From Cytophagales bacterium (GTDB taxonomy: Bacteria > Bacteroidota > Bacteroidia > Cytophagales > Bernardetiaceae): 64,000 nt of DNA. The translations under genes were made by a program, and so were the position numbers. The notes under the pieces were generated by a model that was not told the origin of the DNA, made no database searches, and saw only the letters and a program-made list of their open reading frames with translations. How positions within the stretch are numbered: the first letter of the stretch is position 1; the number at the start of each line of letters is the position of its first letter. Location: the NCBI GenBank assembly GCA_013299045.1, contig JAAFJX010000010.1:1-64000 (forward strand), given 5' to 3'. Of the stretch, positions 52,224-58,485 are shown in pieces.

Positions 52224-52814
52224 ATGTTAAAAACCATGAAACTTTTGCTGGCGGCGGCCTTTCTGCTCGCTGGCCTCAGCTTGGCTGGCTGCAAAAACTG
52301 CAAGGAGGATAATAATAGCGGAACTGGTAGCGTTACGCCACCAAGCAAAATTGATAAGGTCTTCCATTTATGCCTTGTGGATAAAAAAACAGGGAAATCT
52401 TTAGTAGGCGAGGGCGCAGACCAGATTCCATTGTCAAACATTGACATCGTGGGGGCAAACTACAGAGACGTTGTCCAATATTACGATTTACTTGTAAAGG
52501 ACATGAAAACCAGCATAGACCCACGTACAGGGCACATTGTTATGGGGCCAATCAAATGGGGACATGATGTACAACAATCTTTTTTTGTTCGTGTTCTGGA
52601 TAGCCCCAAGCGTGTACTAGGTGAGATTCCTCCTGGCTATAAACTTTTGTGGATAGTTATGAGCAAGGAGGCCGAAATACTTGATGAGTGCAACAGCAAA
52701 ATTTGGGTGGATTATTCGCATTACAAAAAAGGTGTTTCAACCCAGGGTGTGTTGGTATCCAAATACAAAGGTAATGGCCTCACCGACACCCTCCGCTTAG
52801 AAGTAGAACGCTAA
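52224..52814 (+). CDS. Tandem-array lipoprotein, copy 1
   Basis: 196 aa. The signal peptide begins MLKTMK and ends in lipobox LAGC (Cys23), followed by the array-wide KNCKE. A Gly/Ser/Pro spacer leads to LVDKKTGKSLVGEGADQIPL, the family core (DKKTG..L.G...DQIP). A variable centre follows, then DECNSKIWVDYSHYKKG and the conserved C-terminus GLTDTLRLEVER. It differs from the others in ending LRLEVER rather than LRIEVER. Closest to copy 5 at both ends (TGSVTPPSKIDKVF; DYSHYKKGVSTQ). No named family recognised; the domain looks like a small beta sandwich. A terminator-like stem follows at 52888. Confidence 0.85.
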   Translation: MLKTMKLLLAAAFLLAGLSLAGCKNCKEDNNSGTGSVTPPSKIDKVFHLCLVDKKTGKSLVGEGADQIPLSNIDIVGANYRDVVQYYDLLVKDMKTSIDPRTGHIVMGPIKWGHDVQQSFFVRVLDSPKRVLGEIPPGYKLLWIVMSKEAEILDECNSKIWVDYSHYKKGVSTQGVLVSKYKGNGLTDTLRLEVER

Positions 52815-52887
52815 AATTATTCCGTAAAAATTGCACTCATCAAAGAATTTTTAACTCAAAAAATGGTTTTAGGTTCTTTAAACTAAG

Positions 52888-52918
52888 CCTTGGTATAACT
52901 ATTTCAAGGATTTTTTAT
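52888..52918 (+). terminator. Terminator between array copies 1 and 2
   Basis: CCTTG (52888-52892) pairs with CAAGG (52905-52909), then ATTTTTTATTTTT. The same stem recurs after copy 3 but not after copies 2 and 4. Confidence 0.55.
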
Positions 52919-52970
52919 TTTTCTGTTTCTTTTGTCATGTTTTTTTTGTCTACACATATAAGTACGGTCT

Positions 52971-53013
52971 TAACTTTGCAAACCGAAACGCTCTTGTTTC
53001 GGCTTTTTCTTTT
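52971..53013 (+). promoter_or_regulatory. Array copy 2: promoter and 5' leader hairpin
   Basis: TAACTTTG (52971-52978), then four bases, then CCGAAAC-GCTCTT-GTTTCGG (52983-53002) and a T-rich tract. The hairpin starts about where transcription should begin. Confidence 0.65.
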
Positions 53014-53042
53014 AAATTTTAACCCAAAAACAAACAAAACTC

Positions 53043-53594
53043 ATGTTAAAAACCATGAAACTTTCGCTGGCGGCTGCCTTTCTGCTCGCTGGCCTCAGCT
53101 TGGCTGGCTGCAAAAACTGCAAGGAAGAATCTTCAATGTCTTCGCCCAATGCCATGACACCTGTAATCTCTGACCTTTCTTCTTACTATGTGTATTTTGT
53201 AGATAAGAAAACAGGGAGACCACTTATTGGCGATGGTGAGGGGCAAATTCCTCTTGGGGCAGTCAAAATAAAAAGCCAAACAGTGAAAGTCCAACCCATG
53301 ACGGACATTCCTGACCAGACCCTCTTCGGCCCGTTTAAGTGGTTTTTTACGGAAGGTCATGTAAAGCATGGTATTTCTTTTACCGAAGGCAGCAGCAGTG
53401 ATGTCGTGATTTATCATATGACTATACATGGCGAGCCAAGAACAGAGATTATAGATGAGTGCAATAGCATAACTTGGGTAGATTACGGGCATTATTACTT
53501 TGAAAAACCTGGAGTAACTAAAGCTGGTGTTTTGCAGCAAACTTTCAGAGGCGATGGAATGACCGACACCCTCCGCATAGAAGTAGAACGCTAA
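53043..53594 (+). CDS. Tandem-array lipoprotein, copy 2
   Basis: 183 aa. Same signal peptide with one change (KLSLAAAF for KLLLAAAF). The spacer after KNCKE is SSMSSPNAMTP, shared with copy 3 only. Core: YFVDKKTGRPLIGDGEGQIPLGAV. The variable centre is shorter than in copy 1 (VKVQPMTDIPDQTLFGPFKWFFTEG). The end, DECNSITWVDYGHYYFEKPG then TFRGDGMTDTLRIEVER, again pairs with copy 3. Probably anchored at the outer membrane. Own promoter and leader hairpin; the downstream spacer is the type without the CCTTG stem. Confidence 0.85.
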   Translation: MLKTMKLSLAAAFLLAGLSLAGCKNCKEESSMSSPNAMTPVISDLSSYYVYFVDKKTGRPLIGDGEGQIPLGAVKIKSQTVKVQPMTDIPDQTLFGPFKWFFTEGHVKHGISFTEGSSSDVVIYHMTIHGEPRTEIIDECNSITWVDYGHYYFEKPGVTKAGVLQQTFRGDGMTDTLRIEVER

Positions 53595-53749
53595 AATTAT
53601 TCCTTGAAAATTTGCACTCATCAAAAAATTTTTAACTCAAAAAATGGTTTTAGATGCTCTAAATAAAAATATCATGTAGTTATTAAAAAAAAAATTCATT
53701 TTTATACTTTTTTTTACTTTATTTTTTGGCAATTTGTTAGGCAAGGGCT

Positions 53750-53792
53750 TAACTTTGCAAACTGAACCACTCTTGTTTCGGCTTTTTCTTTT
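53750..53792 (+). promoter_or_regulatory. Array copy 3: promoter and weakened leader hairpin
   Basis: TAACTTTG (53750-53757). The stem's 5' arm reads CTGAACC (53762-53768) against GTTTCGG (53775-53781), so one A-T pair is lost relative to the other copies. Confidence 0.6.
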
Positions 53793-53821
53793 AAATTTTA
53801 ACCCAAAAACAAACAAAACTC

Positions 53822-54364
53822 ATGTTAAAAACCATGAAACTTTTGCTGGCGGCGGCCTTTCTGCTCGCTGGCCTCAGCTTGGCTGGCTGCAAAAACTGCA
53901 AGGAAGAATCTTCAATGTCTTCGCCCAATGCCATGACACCCTCTTCGGATGTGTATTCACATTATGTTTATTTTGTGAATCAAAAAACAGGGAGACCTCT
54001 CATAGGCGATGGCAAAGACCAGATTCCTTTAGGAGCAGTAGAAATGGATGTACCTAATCAAAAGGCAGTTCTGGATTCCTTGACAGGGAATCTTATCTTT
54101 GGGCTTTGTCAATGGCCTTCCAATCGCGGGTGCTATCAAAATATATTCTTTCAGGACAAGCCAGGCAGTTCGCGTACTATCCACGTTGTACAAATTGATG
54201 GAGTGAAAAAATCAGAAATTCTTGATGAGTGCAATAGCAGAACTTGGGTAGAGTACAGCTATTACGACTTTCCTAATCCCGGCTCAGGTGAGCGCGGCAC
54301 TCTGAAGACCATCTTCAGAGGCGATGGAATGACCGACACCCTCCGCATAGAAGTAGAACGCTAA
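53822..54364 (+). CDS. Tandem-array lipoprotein, copy 3
   Basis: 180 aa, the shortest copy. The 5' ~120 bases are essentially identical to copy 2 through SSMSSPNAMTP, after which the sequences diverge. Core: YFVNQKTGRPLIGDGKDQIPLGAV, with Asn-Gln replacing Asp-Lys. Variable centre: LDSLTGNLIFGLCQWPSNRG, containing two extra cysteines (LCQW and GCYQ). End: DECNSRTWVEYSYYDF then IFRGDGMTDTLRIEVER. A CCTTG...CAAGG stem with T-run follows at 54439. Confidence 0.85.
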   Translation: MLKTMKLLLAAAFLLAGLSLAGCKNCKEESSMSSPNAMTPSSDVYSHYVYFVNQKTGRPLIGDGKDQIPLGAVEMDVPNQKAVLDSLTGNLIFGLCQWPSNRGCYQNIFFQDKPGSSRTIHVVQIDGVKKSEILDECNSRTWVEYSYYDFPNPGSGERGTLKTIFRGDGMTDTLRIEVER

Positions 54365-54438
54365 AATTATTCCTTGAAAATTTGCACTCATCAAAGAATT
54401 TTTAACTCAAAAAATAGTTTTGGATTCTTTAAACTAAG

Positions 54439-54470
54439 CCTTGATGTAACTATTTCAAGGACTTTTTATT
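54439..54470 (+). terminator. Terminator between array copies 3 and 4
   Basis: CCTTG (54439-54443) pairs with CAAGG (54456-54460), then ACTTTTTATTTTT. Confidence 0.55.
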
Positions 54471-54520
54471 TTTCTATTTCTTTTACCATACTTTTTGGGT
54501 CTATGTATTAAGCAAGGTCT

Positions 54521-54563
54521 TAACTTTGCAAACTGAAACGCTCTTGTTTCGGCTTTTTCTTTT
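54521..54563 (+). promoter_or_regulatory. Array copy 4: promoter and 5' leader hairpin
   Basis: TTG at 54495-54497, a 23-base spacer, TAACTTTG (54521-54528) and the CTGAAAC-GCTCTT-GTTTCGG hairpin (54533-54552). Confidence 0.65.
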
Positions 54564-54592
54564 AAATTTTAACCCAAAAACAAACAAAATTC

Positions 54593-55180
54593 ATGTTAAA
54601 AACCATGAAACTTTTGCTGGCGGCGGCCTTTCTGCTCGCTGGCCTCAGCTTGGCTGGCTGCAAAAACTGCAAGGAGGAGAATAACTCTTCGGCGAATAGC
54701 GATAGCCCACCGAACGAAAAATCAAAAAAATTCTGTGTTTATTTTGTGGATAAAAAAACAGGAAAGTCTCTTATTGGCAATGACAAAGATCAAATTCCAT
54801 TCGAGAATCTTGATATCACACTTGATGGCTATCACAAAACGCCCAGAGATTATTATGGTGCAGTGCGAAATCCTGCTTCTAGTATGGATACTCGAACGGG
54901 TCGTCTTATCATCGGCCCCATAGAATGGGGCTGGGAAGCCAAGGAGGAGTTTGGTATTCGTTTTCTAGTATCTCCAAAGCGACTTCTTGATGAAATCCCT
55001 CCATGTACAGACAGCCTACTGTTTGAGGCATTGAAGCGTGCTGAAATCATTGATGATTGCAACAGCAATATTTGGGTGGAATACGCGCACTTCAAAATAG
55101 GCGCTAAACCAATGGCCTTGCAGCAAAAATACAAAGGTAATGGCCTCACCGACACCCTCCGCATAGAAGTAGAACGCTAA
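54593..55180 (+). CDS. Tandem-array lipoprotein, copy 4
   Basis: 195 aa. Standard array signal peptide, but a spacer of its own (NNSSANSDSPPNEKSKKF). Core: YFVDKKTGKSLIGNDKDQIPFENLDIT. The variable centre (YHKTPRDYYGAVRNPASSMD then IIGPIEWGWEAKEEFGIRFL) follows the layout of copies 1 and 5, including an FLVSPKRLLDEIPP segment that parallels VLDSPKRVLGEIPP of copy 1. End: DDCNSNIWVEYAHFKIG then KYKGNGLTDTLRIEVER. It shares the C-terminal YKGNGLTDTLR block with copies 1 and 5 rather than FRGDGMTDTLR of copies 2 and 3. Confidence 0.85.
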   Translation: MLKTMKLLLAAAFLLAGLSLAGCKNCKEENNSSANSDSPPNEKSKKFCVYFVDKKTGKSLIGNDKDQIPFENLDITLDGYHKTPRDYYGAVRNPASSMDTRTGRLIIGPIEWGWEAKEEFGIRFLVSPKRLLDEIPPCTDSLLFEALKRAEIIDDCNSNIWVEYAHFKIGAKPMALQQKYKGNGLTDTLRIEVER

Positions 55181-55334
55181 AATTATTCCTTAAAAACTGC
55201 ACTCATCAAAGAATTTTTAACTCAAAAAATAGCTTGAGGCTCTCTAAATAAAGACTTCATGTAACTATTAAAAAAAATTTACTTTTTCTATTTCTTTTAC
55301 CATACTTTTTGGGTCTGTATATTAAGCAAGGTCT

Positions 55335-55377
55335 TATCTTTGCAAACCGAAACGCTCTTGTTTCGGCTTTTTCTTTT
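55335..55377 (+). promoter_or_regulatory. Array copy 5: promoter and 5' leader hairpin
   Basis: TATCTTTG (55335-55342) and CCGAAAC-GCTCTT-GTTTCGG (55347-55366). This promoter probably also drives the metalloprotease gene. Confidence 0.65.
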
Positions 55378-55406
55378 AAATTTTAACCCAAAAACAAACA
55401 AAACTC

Positions 55407-55994
55407 ATGTTAAAAACCATGAAACTTTTGCTGGCGGCGGCCTTTCTGCTCGCTGGCCTCAGCTTGGCTGGCTGCAAAAACTGCAAGGAGGATAATAATG
55501 GCGGAACTGGTAGCGTTACGCCACCAAGCAAAATTGATAAGGTTTTTTATCTCTACCTTGTAGATAAAAAAACAAGCAAACCTCTGATAGGTGAGAACCC
55601 AGACCAAATTTCCCCTAAAAGACTAGATTTTATTCGCAATGGCTATGGTATAGGTGAATATCATGAGTATTTGGTCAAGGATTTAGAAAAAAACATCGAT
55701 TTGCGCACAGGCCACACCATTTTTGGGCCTTTTACGTGGGGAGCTGTACAGGAGATTATATATATCCGTGTATTAGATGAACCTATTGAGCGCAAAGCAG
55801 GACAAATTCCCTACGGTTACACGCTTTTATGGGTTGCTGCTCGCAAGGAGGCCGAAATCATTGATGAGTGCAACAGCAAAATTTGGGTAGATTATTCGCA
55901 TTACAAAAAAGGTGTTTCAACTCAAAGTGTGTTGGTATCCAAATACAAAGGTAATGGCCTCACCGACACCCTCCGCATTGAAGTAGAACGCTAA
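55407..55994 (+). CDS. Tandem-array lipoprotein, copy 5
   Basis: 195 aa. Spacer GGTGSVTPPSKIDKVF is nearly identical to copy 1. Core: YLVDKKTSKPLIGENPDQISPKRL; the TG of the core is TS and IPL is ISP. Variable centre: GIGEYHEYLVKDLEKNIDLRTGHTIFGPFTWG. The end, DECNSKIWVDYSHYKKGVSTQ then GLTDTLRIEVER, is again close to copy 1. Only 15 bases separate its stop from the ATG of the metalloprotease gene, with no leader hairpin between, so the two should be co-transcribed. Confidence 0.85.
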   Translation: MLKTMKLLLAAAFLLAGLSLAGCKNCKEDNNGGTGSVTPPSKIDKVFYLYLVDKKTSKPLIGENPDQISPKRLDFIRNGYGIGEYHEYLVKDLEKNIDLRTGHTIFGPFTWGAVQEIIYIRVLDEPIERKAGQIPYGYTLLWVAARKEAEIIDECNSKIWVDYSHYKKGVSTQSVLVSKYKGNGLTDTLRIEVER

Positions 55995-56009: not shown

Positions 56010-58485
56010 ATGAAAAATATATCAAAAATAGCATTCTCTTTACTGCTCCTTTTTGTGGGCAGCTTTGCTTATGCGCAACAAAATCCTGTTAAACGCTGTG
56101 GTGTTGGCAGTAATTACTCGGATACTGTTATTCTCAAGCAACTGCCTTGGTTCGGCAACAATGCCTGGCTCAAATCCTACACGGACAGCATCGTTAGGGC
56201 ACGGTCTTTGCTCTATCTACCCCCCCCCCCACGAGCGTGGAGCGAGTGGTAGCAGCGCCAGCGCGCTAAGGCTAGCCACGGTTGGGGGCAAGGTGAATAC
56301 CCTCTATCAAATACCAGTCATGGCCACGATTTATCACAGAGATGATGGTACAGGTGGTATTTCTGATGCAATGGCTGAATATCATATAAATGGTGCGAAT
56401 GAGTATTTCAAAAAAAATGGTGTCAGTATTTTTTTATACCTCATTTGCAGCCCTATTCACTACAATTGGACAGCTAGAAGCGAGCCTAGTTACGCTAATA
56501 CCGATGATATTATGGAAGATGCTGTGGAGGCATATCCCAATGTTATGAATATTAGTTTTGTAACTGCTTCAACAGATTTTGGTGGAGTAGCAGAGCTTCC
56601 ACATGGTTGGGGGGGATATAAAAGGAGATATTCTGCAATCGTTTGCACAAATGGAGGCGTTGCTTATACGGATCTTACCATCACACATGAAATAGGCCAT
56701 GCTTTGGGCTTGTTCCACACGCATAATTCTACTTGGCCAGACGAAGAGGTGAATGCGACGGTTAATATCTGTAAGCAAGAACCTGTCAGCCGGACAGCCC
56801 ATACGCCCTGGTATTGTGGCTCAAGCTATTTTGGCAAAGCTTGTGAACGCAATGGCGACTTGCTCTGCGACACCCACGCTGACCCTGGTATGGAAGATAC
56901 TGGGATATCAGACCCACTGGATTCCGTCAATGTCCCGCGAGACTGTATCTACAATTACACTGGCACCAATGTAGATAGAATACGAGATAAACTGCACGGT
57001 ACTAGATGGGACTCGCCTGATGGCTATAACGCCTACTACAACATCATGTCCTATGCTGAGGCTATCTGCAGACGGCAGTTTACACCTGACCAAACAGCGG
57101 TGATGTACTACTTCACGGAGCGTTACAAAAAAACGATTTTAGGCATACCTGTCCTGAATCCTGTAACCTTCTATGAGAACAAGGGCTTGGACGTTTACGA
57201 AAATGACAACTATTTTCAGAATGCAAAATTCTATGATATTCTGCACCCACGCAGGCAGCATAGAACCTTTCACAGCGTCATCAATCCTGTAAGCAATCAG
57301 CCACAGTTTTGCGATACAGACTGGGTTCGTTTTAAGATTGAGAGTTCTCGCAGAGTCATTATACGCACCTCGGAAGTACCAGGTAAGCCCAAGCCTAATA
57401 CGATTTTGAGCCTTTTCGGCACAGCAGACATAAGTGTTGTACCTGCTGTTATATCAGTGGTCATACACACAGACGACAACCCCAGCTCTAACTTCTCTAA
57501 GCTAGATGTCATTTTGCCCGCAGGCGATTATCTGGTGCGTGTGCAAAACACAGAAACCCTTGCGGATATGAATTATTTTCTGACACTTAGTCTGGACAGA
57601 GAGTTTGACGACTTCGGTATAGGTTTTTCGGGGTTGGGTGGCGTGGACTTACTAGAAGAAGAAACAGATAATGTTGTGGCTTGCGTAGGCGACCAGTTTA
57701 CGGCCAGTGGTGTGCCAGAAGGCTGTGAGGCGGTGTGGAGCTCAGAAACGCCAGGGCTGTATATCAGCAGTTCTGGCCTTGTGCTGCCTGCTACAAGCAC
57801 CTACATCAATACCATCAATGGCGGAAATGGTTTTGAGGCACAAATTAGGCTAGAAGTTTTTTGCGACGGCCAAACATTGCCTTCCACGACCATCAGTTTT
57901 AGCTTGTGGGTAGGCCCACTCGTGAAGCCTACCATAGAGATAGTCCACCCAGTAACTTCTACCACCGGACATCTCTGCCTCAATTCTGGTAACTACCTCC
58001 AAGCAACAACATCTGGTGTTTATCCCGATGAATACGAATGGAATGTTGTTGGTATGGGTGGGGGCAGCAGCGGCACTTACTTTACCGACAATACGCTCAC
58101 GCTTCCAGAGTTTAGTGCCTCAACCGCTTGGTATCACATCAAGGTACGTGCTCGCAACCGCTGCGGTTGGTCGCCATGGTCTTCTCTCATGCAAGTTTCG
58201 GTTACTATGTGCAGCGAAGAATTCCTGCCTGGCGGTGGCCGCATGGCTTCCCTCGCGCCCAACCCTGCCCAAAACCAAGTAACAGTAACGGTCAGGAATG
58301 AAATACCAATAGCGCAAGGTGGCCTGGATATTCGCATCAAGGATATGTATGGCCTAGAAAAAATAGCCGTGCAGAGCCAAACCCGCGAAACGAGCTTGGA
58401 TATCAGCACTTTGTCCGTCGGTATTTACATCGTTTATGTGCAGAACGGCTCAAAAATAGAGTATTTGCGCTTGAACGTGGAATAA
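56010..58485 (+). pseudogene. M43-like (pappalysin/cytophagalysin type) T9SS metalloprotease, frameshifted at a poly-C tract
   Basis: The signal peptide (ISKIAFSLLLLFVGSFAYAQ) and the first ~70 residues are in one frame from 56010, which stops at 56252. The rest is in the +1 frame to 58485. The frames meet at C11 (56220-56230); ten C residues would join them into a protein of about 825 aa. The downstream frame has the zinc motif HEIGHALGLFHTH, conserved cysteines, the Met-turn NIMSYA, a PPC-like beta domain, a Cys-containing Ig-like region and a T9SS type A sorting domain (SLAPNPAQNQVTVTV to the end KIEYLRLNVE). All catalytic parts are intact, so this is either a phase-OFF allele or a homopolymer error rather than old decay. 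Confidence 0.85.
56220..56230 (+). repeat. C11 homopolymer inside the metalloprotease gene
   Basis: Eleven consecutive C residues directly at the junction of the two reading frames. It is by far the longest C or G run noticed in the window. Confidence 0.9.

What the first reader, a model, noticed from the sequence alone, without database searches (positions are those of the whole stretch)
56205..56260. Poly-C tract (C11) splits the secreted metalloprotease gene: possible phase-variation switch
The signal-peptide frame ends 22 bases after an 11-base C run, and the catalytic and sorting domains continue in the +1 frame. C10 (or C13) would give one continuous protein of about 825 aa, with zinc motif, Met-turn and T9SS signal all intact. 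A long homopolymer just after the signal peptide is the classical position for slipped-strand ON/OFF control of surface proteins. The alternative is a homopolymer miscall.
Basis: partly seen in the sequence, partly recalled or inferred. Interest (0 to 1): 0.75.

Follow-up and report, generated by a model that had tools for sequence, protein, structure and literature searches.

The report
Slippery C-run switch in secreted protease
A run of 11 C's puts a secreted zinc protease gene of a Cytophagales bacterium out of frame, and most relatives of the gene in this genome and in a second species of the genus carry such runs at the same spots with different lengths, so this looks like a genuine random on/off (phase-variation) switch, a mechanism well known from Neisseria but hardly described for this phylum.

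Summary
In detail: C11 at 56220-56230 splits a T9SS-secreted, pappalysin/metzincin-like zinc protease. The ATG frame stops at 56250-56252; lengths n=1 mod 3 (10, 13) give one 824-aa protein. Phase variation by slipped-strand mispairing is well supported by comparison, though no read or strain data were available. (i) A paralogue (contig C72) has C15 at the same site. The flanking 125 bp are identical although the proteins share only ~52%, so the tract changed length where the flanks did not change at all. (ii) The same-genus MAG has C10 and C8 at the site. (iii) A sister subfamily (Peptidase_M43) carries poly-G tracts (G8-G15) inside the signal peptide in both genomes. (iv) C/G runs of 11 or more are about 18-fold over expectation in the genome (5 vs 0.27). 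(v) The out-of-frame bodies stay open for hundreds of codons with pN/pS <1. One full-length G-tract gene is in frame; nearly all others are OFF. A miscall is unlikely: A8 and G7 in this same ORF keep frame. Corrections: the tract lies about 48 residues after the predicted signal peptide, between a Cys-Gly pro-segment and the catalytic domain, and belongs to a multi-locus set. Closest analogues: NalP (poly-C, ON at 7/10/13) and pilC.

The parts
56010..56075 (+). predicted signal peptide MKNISKIAFSLLLLFVGSFAYA (|QQ)
   Evidence: translation; cleavage site placed by eye, no SignalP available
56097..56102 (+). Cys-Gly of the putative cysteine-switch pro-segment (KRCG)
   Evidence: translation; Cys-Gly also in C72 and G001-C33; the cysteine-switch role is inferred from mirolysin (PMC6949598)
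56148..56273 (+). tract module: ~125 bp identical to the paralogue on contig C72 apart from tract length (C11 vs C15)
   Evidence: (identical stretches 56148-56218 and 56220-56273)
56220..56230 (+). poly-C tract, C11 (OFF register; ON when n = 1 mod 3)
56250..56252 (+). premature TAG that ends the ATG frame at C11
56278..58482 (+). protease body in the shifted frame: catalytic domain, Ig-like region and sorting domain
   Evidence: open frame; Pfam Reprolysin_5 28 bits vs 27 cut-off and Por_Secre_tail; profile match to pappalysin-1 E 8e-11
56686..56718 (+). zinc-binding motif HEIGHALGLFH
57040..57054 (+). Met-turn NIMSY
   Evidence: invariant N265, M267, S268 and Y269
58258..58455 (+). T9SS type A C-terminal sorting domain
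55407..55994 (+). lipoprotein directly upstream of the protease (putative potempin-like partner)
   Evidence: inhibitor role is inference only
52224..55180 (+). four further tandem paralogues of that lipoprotein (52224-52814, 53043-53594, 53822-54364, 54593-55180)

Best explanation
The C11 run is the switch of a phase-variable (contingency) gene. Polymerase slippage adds or removes C's. When the number is 1 mod 3 (10, 13), the signal peptide plus Cys-Gly pro-segment is read continuously into the metzincin catalytic domain and the T9SS sorting domain, and an 824-aa secreted or surface protease is made (ON). Any other length, including the assembled C11, stops translation about ten codons after the tract (OFF). 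The gene is one of a set: a C-tract subfamily with the tract between pro-segment and catalytic domain, and an M43 subfamily with a G-tract inside the signal peptide. Switching at several loci would therefore give a combinatorial repertoire of secreted proteases. Shown here: the sequence anatomy, the length differences between homologous tracts, the conservation of tract and position across two species, and selection on the silent bodies. Inferred: that length changes happen at high rate within a clone, that the 824-aa form is made and secreted, and that the protease is active.
For: Homologous tracts of different length at the same site: C11 (window), C15 (C72), C10 (G001 C33) and C8 (G001 C1, body deleted). 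The window and C72 tract modules are identical over ~125 bp except for tract length, while the genes around them are ~52% identical in protein. A second tract type is a G-run in the signal peptide of M43 proteases: G11, G10, G11, G8 plus a remnant with G10 in this genome; G8, G9, G10, G11 plus a truncated copy with G15 in G001. The full-length G001 gene with G11 is in frame (639 aa), so the ON form exists in nature. Silent bodies are open for 607-745 codons (no stop in the stretches compared) and pN/pS is 0.33-0.61. Expected C/G runs >=11 in the genome 0.27, observed 5, of which 4 lie in these protease genes. A tract-less paralogue (L057, 776 aa) and outgroup homologues (L027, L028) are continuous and lack the tract, so the tract was gained within a working gene family. 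The shift needed differs between loci, which fits random length drift better than a programmed frameshift.
Against: No reads, no strain comparison and no proteome were available. Of 12 tract-bearing genes or remnants of either subfamily with an intact start and without the truncated G15 copy, only one is ON (P of 1 or fewer at 1/3 each about 0.05), and several G-tract genes in this genome are damaged elsewhere: L053 has a second frameshift, L055 an insertion, L060 an HE to HQ change in the zinc motif, and L056 is a remnant. The G001 orthologue lacks a signal peptide. Part of the set is therefore decaying, and some loci may be locked OFF.
Confidence: 0.8

Rival explanations
1. Assembly or sequencing miscall: the real run is a fixed C10 and the gene is an ordinary continuous protease gene.
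For: Homopolymers are the usual place for indel errors. The ON length is one base away. The contig is part of a 79-contig draft.
Against: The window is otherwise gene-dense with long open frames (43 non-overlapping ORFs >=150 aa, 83% coverage), and other homopolymers inside ORFs keep frame, including A8 and G7 in this same ORF. G9 to G11 runs are in frame in unrelated genes (L066, L067, L069; L078 G11). Paralogue and orthologue also have long unbroken runs, and a miscall would not explain C15, C10, C8 and the G-tract family.
Confidence: 0.06
2. Pseudogene: the gene was killed by a tract indel and is permanently off; tract-bearing genes are degenerating copies.
For: Nearly all copies are OFF; L053, L055, L056, L060, L062, L073 and L077 carry further damage.
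Against: The window, C72 and G001 C33 bodies are intact with zinc motif and Met-turn, differ at about half their residues with no stop, and have pN/pS 0.44-0.51. Long-dead genes would not look like this. One sister gene (L076) is intact and ON.
Confidence: 0.08
3. Expression despite the frameshift, by transcriptional slippage or ribosomal frameshifting on the tract, giving a constant low level of protease.
For: Long homopolymers can cause RNA polymerase slippage (general knowledge; PMC2831843 mentions it for poly-A in Buchnera).
Against: The register to be corrected differs between loci, so no fixed-direction programmed frameshift fits. No unusual structure stands out around the tract (single-strand DNA folding z -0.8 to -1.5; RNA folding not run). 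It could coexist with phase variation.
Confidence: 0.06

Closest known systems
NalP (AspA) autotransporter protease of Neisseria meningitidis
   Same: Secreted surface protease with a poly-C tract in its coding sequence; ON at 7, 10 or 13 C, the same register as here (PMC3723659)
   Different: Different fold and secretion route (type V autotransporter; a serine protease by general knowledge) and a different phylum; the switching of NalP has been shown with strains and immunoblots, ours has not
pilC of Neisseria gonorrhoeae
   Same: Homo-G tract within the signal-peptide region causing ON/OFF frameshifts (PMC5354566), the placement seen in the G-tract sister proteases
   Different: Pilus tip protein, not a protease; in the window gene itself the tract lies after the signal peptide
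KLIKK proteases and potempins of Tannerella forsythia (for example mirolysin)
   Same: T9SS-type proteases that share a near-identical C-terminal domain, each preceded by a small lipoprotein gene; mirolysin is a pappalysin-family zymogen with a Cys-Gly switch (PMC4404884, PMC7296668, PMC6949598)
   Different: No homopolymer switch is mentioned in the passages read; sequence similarity is confined to the metzincin core; the inhibitor role of our lipoproteins is untested
Invertase-driven phase variation of Bacteroides
   Same: Phase variation of surface features in Bacteroidota (PMC11868660)
   Different: DNA inversion, not tract slippage

Membership tests
Simple-sequence-repeat (slipped-strand) phase-variable gene | Repeat tract in the coding sequence whose length sets the reading frame | tested here: met
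   824 aa only at n = 1 mod 3
Simple-sequence-repeat (slipped-strand) phase-variable gene | Tract length differs among homologous copies or strains while flanks stay conserved | tested here: met
   Between paralogues and species: C11/C15/C10/C8, with 125 bp identical flanks for C11 vs C15; same-species strains not available
Simple-sequence-repeat (slipped-strand) phase-variable gene | Reversible high-rate length change in a clonal population, correlated with expression | not testable with these tools
   needs reads, single colonies and protein assay
Pappalysin-type (M43) / metzincin protease | HEXXHXXGXXH zinc motif and Met-turn | tested here: met
   HEIGHALGLFH and NIMSY
Pappalysin-type (M43) / metzincin protease | Profile match to Peptidase_M43 | tested here: inconclusive
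   Window protein hits Reprolysin_5 (28 vs 27 bits) but not M43; profile of the C-tract group matches pappalysin-1 at E 8e-11; G-tract sisters hit Peptidase_M43 at 1e-17 and 1e-19
T9SS type A cargo | C-terminal sorting domain above curated cut-off | tested here: met
   PF18962 38.8 vs 27 bits, TIGR04183 35.5 vs 23 bits
T9SS type A cargo | Sec signal peptide at the N-terminus | tested here: inconclusive
   Clear n-h-c pattern by eye, joined to the body only in the ON register
Potempin-like inhibitor (upstream lipoproteins) | Lipoprotein gene directly upstream of a secreted protease | tested here: met
   same order at other loci
Potempin-like inhibitor (upstream lipoproteins) | Inhibitor fold or inhibition of the neighbouring protease | tested here: inconclusive
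   AlphaFold model pLDDT 65, all-beta, no significant PDB match; inhibition not testable

The most novel reading that the evidence does not exclude
A combinatorial, multi-locus phase-variation system of T9SS-secreted proteases in Cytophagales. A small 'switch module' (tract plus about 60 bp on either side) and the T9SS tail are copied between paralogues by gene conversion while the catalytic bodies diversify, and a tandem bank of lipoproteins, possibly cognate inhibitors, sits upstream of the phase-variable protease.
Probability: 0.4. Interest if true: 0.7.

Novelty: new member of a known kind. Interest (0 to 1): 0.55.

Why it matters
Tract-slippage phase variation is textbook for Neisseria, Campylobacter and Helicobacter, while the Bacteroidota cases met here are DNA inversions. 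Full-text searches for T9SS together with homopolymer or slipped-strand phase variation found nothing relevant. A set of tract-controlled secreted proteases in a Cytophagales genus would extend the mechanism to T9SS cargo and to a lineage not known as a pathogen, and it shows the same solution (homopolymer early in a secreted-protein gene) at two different positions within one protease superfamily. It also warns annotators that such genes will be called pseudogenes.

Tried and rejected
Looked for a dispersed repeat or mobile element around the tract: only one other copy in the genome, the paralogue on C72. Looked for a hairpin that would promote slippage: single-strand DNA folding no better than z -1.5 against shuffles. 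Tried to place the protease by predicted structure: the two-sequence model was too poor to use (pLDDT 37). Tried to identify the lipoproteins by fold: no significant match. The first scan of genome contigs found nothing; the second gave the G001 locus (MAG Cytophagales bacterium PH2015_06S_41_96) and one weak relative. The ON-length list showed only the single longest length per gene (it even labels L076 OFF) and is superseded.

Full report
Observation. The window holds C11 at 56220-56230. The ATG at 56010 starts a protein with a typical signal peptide (MKNISKIAFSLLLLFVGSFAYA|QQ) and a KRCG segment; its frame stops at 56250-56252 after 80 codons. The frame that carries the catalytic and sorting domains is open from 56032 to 58482. 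Translating the same start with the run set to each length class gives 85 aa (n=0 mod 3), 824 aa (n=1) and 80 aa (n=2). The tract begins at codon 71, so it lies about 48 residues beyond the signal peptide, between a pro-segment-like region and the catalytic domain.

Not chance, and probably not a miscall. C11 is expected 0.01 times in the window by shuffling. In the 4.06-Mb genome the numbers of C/G runs are 36 (>=8), 19 (>=9), 9 (>=10) and 5 (>=11), against Markov expectations of 28, 6.0, 1.3 and 0.27. The excess is thus greatest for the long runs. Four of the five runs >=11, and five of the nine >=10, lie at the start of genes of one secreted-protease group; a sixth lies in a remnant. Elsewhere in the window 43 long ORFs tile 83% of the sequence, and A8, T8, C7 and G7 runs inside them keep frame, including A8 and G7 in this very ORF. 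G9 runs in three other genes, and a G11 in a G001 gene, are in frame.

What the gene is. The shifted frame encodes a zinc protease: HEIGHALGLFH, Met-turn NIMSY, profile match to pappalysin-1 (E 8e-11), Pfam Reprolysin_5 just above cut-off, and a T9SS type A sorting domain. Sisters with G-tracts match Peptidase_M43 clearly. Mirolysin, a T9SS pappalysin, is held latent by a Cys-Gly in its pro-segment (PMC6949598); the KRCG here may serve the same purpose (inference).

Comparison. In this genome the paralogue on contig C72 has C15 at the same place. Over 56148-56273 the two are identical except for the number of C's, while the rest of the genes is about 55% identical in DNA and 52% in protein, except for a near-identical 3' end. 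The tract thus changed by four units while 125 flanking bases did not change. This is the closest thing to a mutation-rate test that the data allow, and it also points to gene conversion of the tract module. The same-genus MAG (Cytophagales bacterium PH2015_06S_41_96) has C10 in its orthologue (50-51% identity) and C8 in a body-deleted copy. A tract-less paralogue in this genome (L057) and homologues in another genus of the family (L027, L028) are continuous and lack the tract.

A second tract type. M43 sisters in both genomes carry poly-G inside the signal peptide, e.g. MKTNKIIFSLIVFFGTIFN-Gn-ILAQ: G11, G10, G11, G8 and a remnant with G10 here; G8, G9, G10, G11 and a truncated G15 copy in G001. 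Full-length G001 gene L076 (G11) is in the ON register, 639 aa. Two different tract positions in one protease superfamily argue for selection of the arrangement.

Selection on silent bodies. The compared bodies have no internal stop over 607-776 codons and pN/pS of 0.33-0.61 at protein identities of 34-62%. Synonymous sites are near saturation, so dN/dS itself is not reliable. Genes that were permanently off since their common ancestor would not be so intact. However, several G-tract genes of this genome are damaged in other ways, and nearly all copies are OFF (1 ON of 12 outside the truncated G15 copy; chance at 1/3 each about 0.05). The set is partly decaying, or OFF is favoured under the conditions sampled.

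Mechanism. Slippage at the tract, random and reversible, with ON at n=1 mod 3. A programmed frameshift is disfavoured because the correction needed differs between loci. Slippage during transcription cannot be excluded.

Known relatives. NalP of N. meningitidis is a secreted protease with a poly-C tract, ON at 7, 10 or 13 C (PMC3723659). pilC carries a homo-G tract in its signal-peptide region (PMC5354566). The gene order lipoprotein then T9SS protease with near-identical tails resembles potempin/KLIKK operons of Tannerella (PMC4404884, PMC7296668). The window has five tandem lipoproteins before one protease; an inhibitor or immunity role is a hypothesis only.

Verdict. Observation confirmed and interpretation supported, short of the read-level proof. 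It is a new member of a known kind, in an unusual lineage and secretion system, and part of a multi-locus set.

Noticed in passing
window 52224-55994: Five tandem paralogous lipoprotein genes with conserved ends (MLKTMK..AGC and DTLRxEVER) and variable middles, all upstream of the single protease gene; the same kind of gene precedes the other proteases. Possibly a bank of inhibitor or immunity proteins.
   Followed up: partly
window 56148-56273 and 58240-58381 vs L011: Mosaic similarity between the window protease and its C72 paralogue: near-identical tract module and T9SS tail, ~55% elsewhere; suggests gene conversion or body swapping.
   Followed up: partly
L062:2451-3107: Body-deleted copy in G001: signal peptide, C8 tract, a short stub and a T9SS tail only.
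   Followed up: partly
L084:1501 and L089:796 (reverse strand): In other genera of the family, G12 and G11 runs lie just after signal-peptide-like sequences of unrelated genes; SSR phase variation may be wider in this family.
   Followed up: no
L059 (C4:61625-61635) and L078 (G001 C14:14594-14604): C11 and G11 runs that are in frame inside a 266-aa gene and a phosphatase-like (SpoIIE-type by eye) gene; further candidate contingency loci.
   Followed up: no
L055: The G-tract protease is interrupted by about 0.5 kb of extra sequence near the zinc motif region.
   Followed up: no
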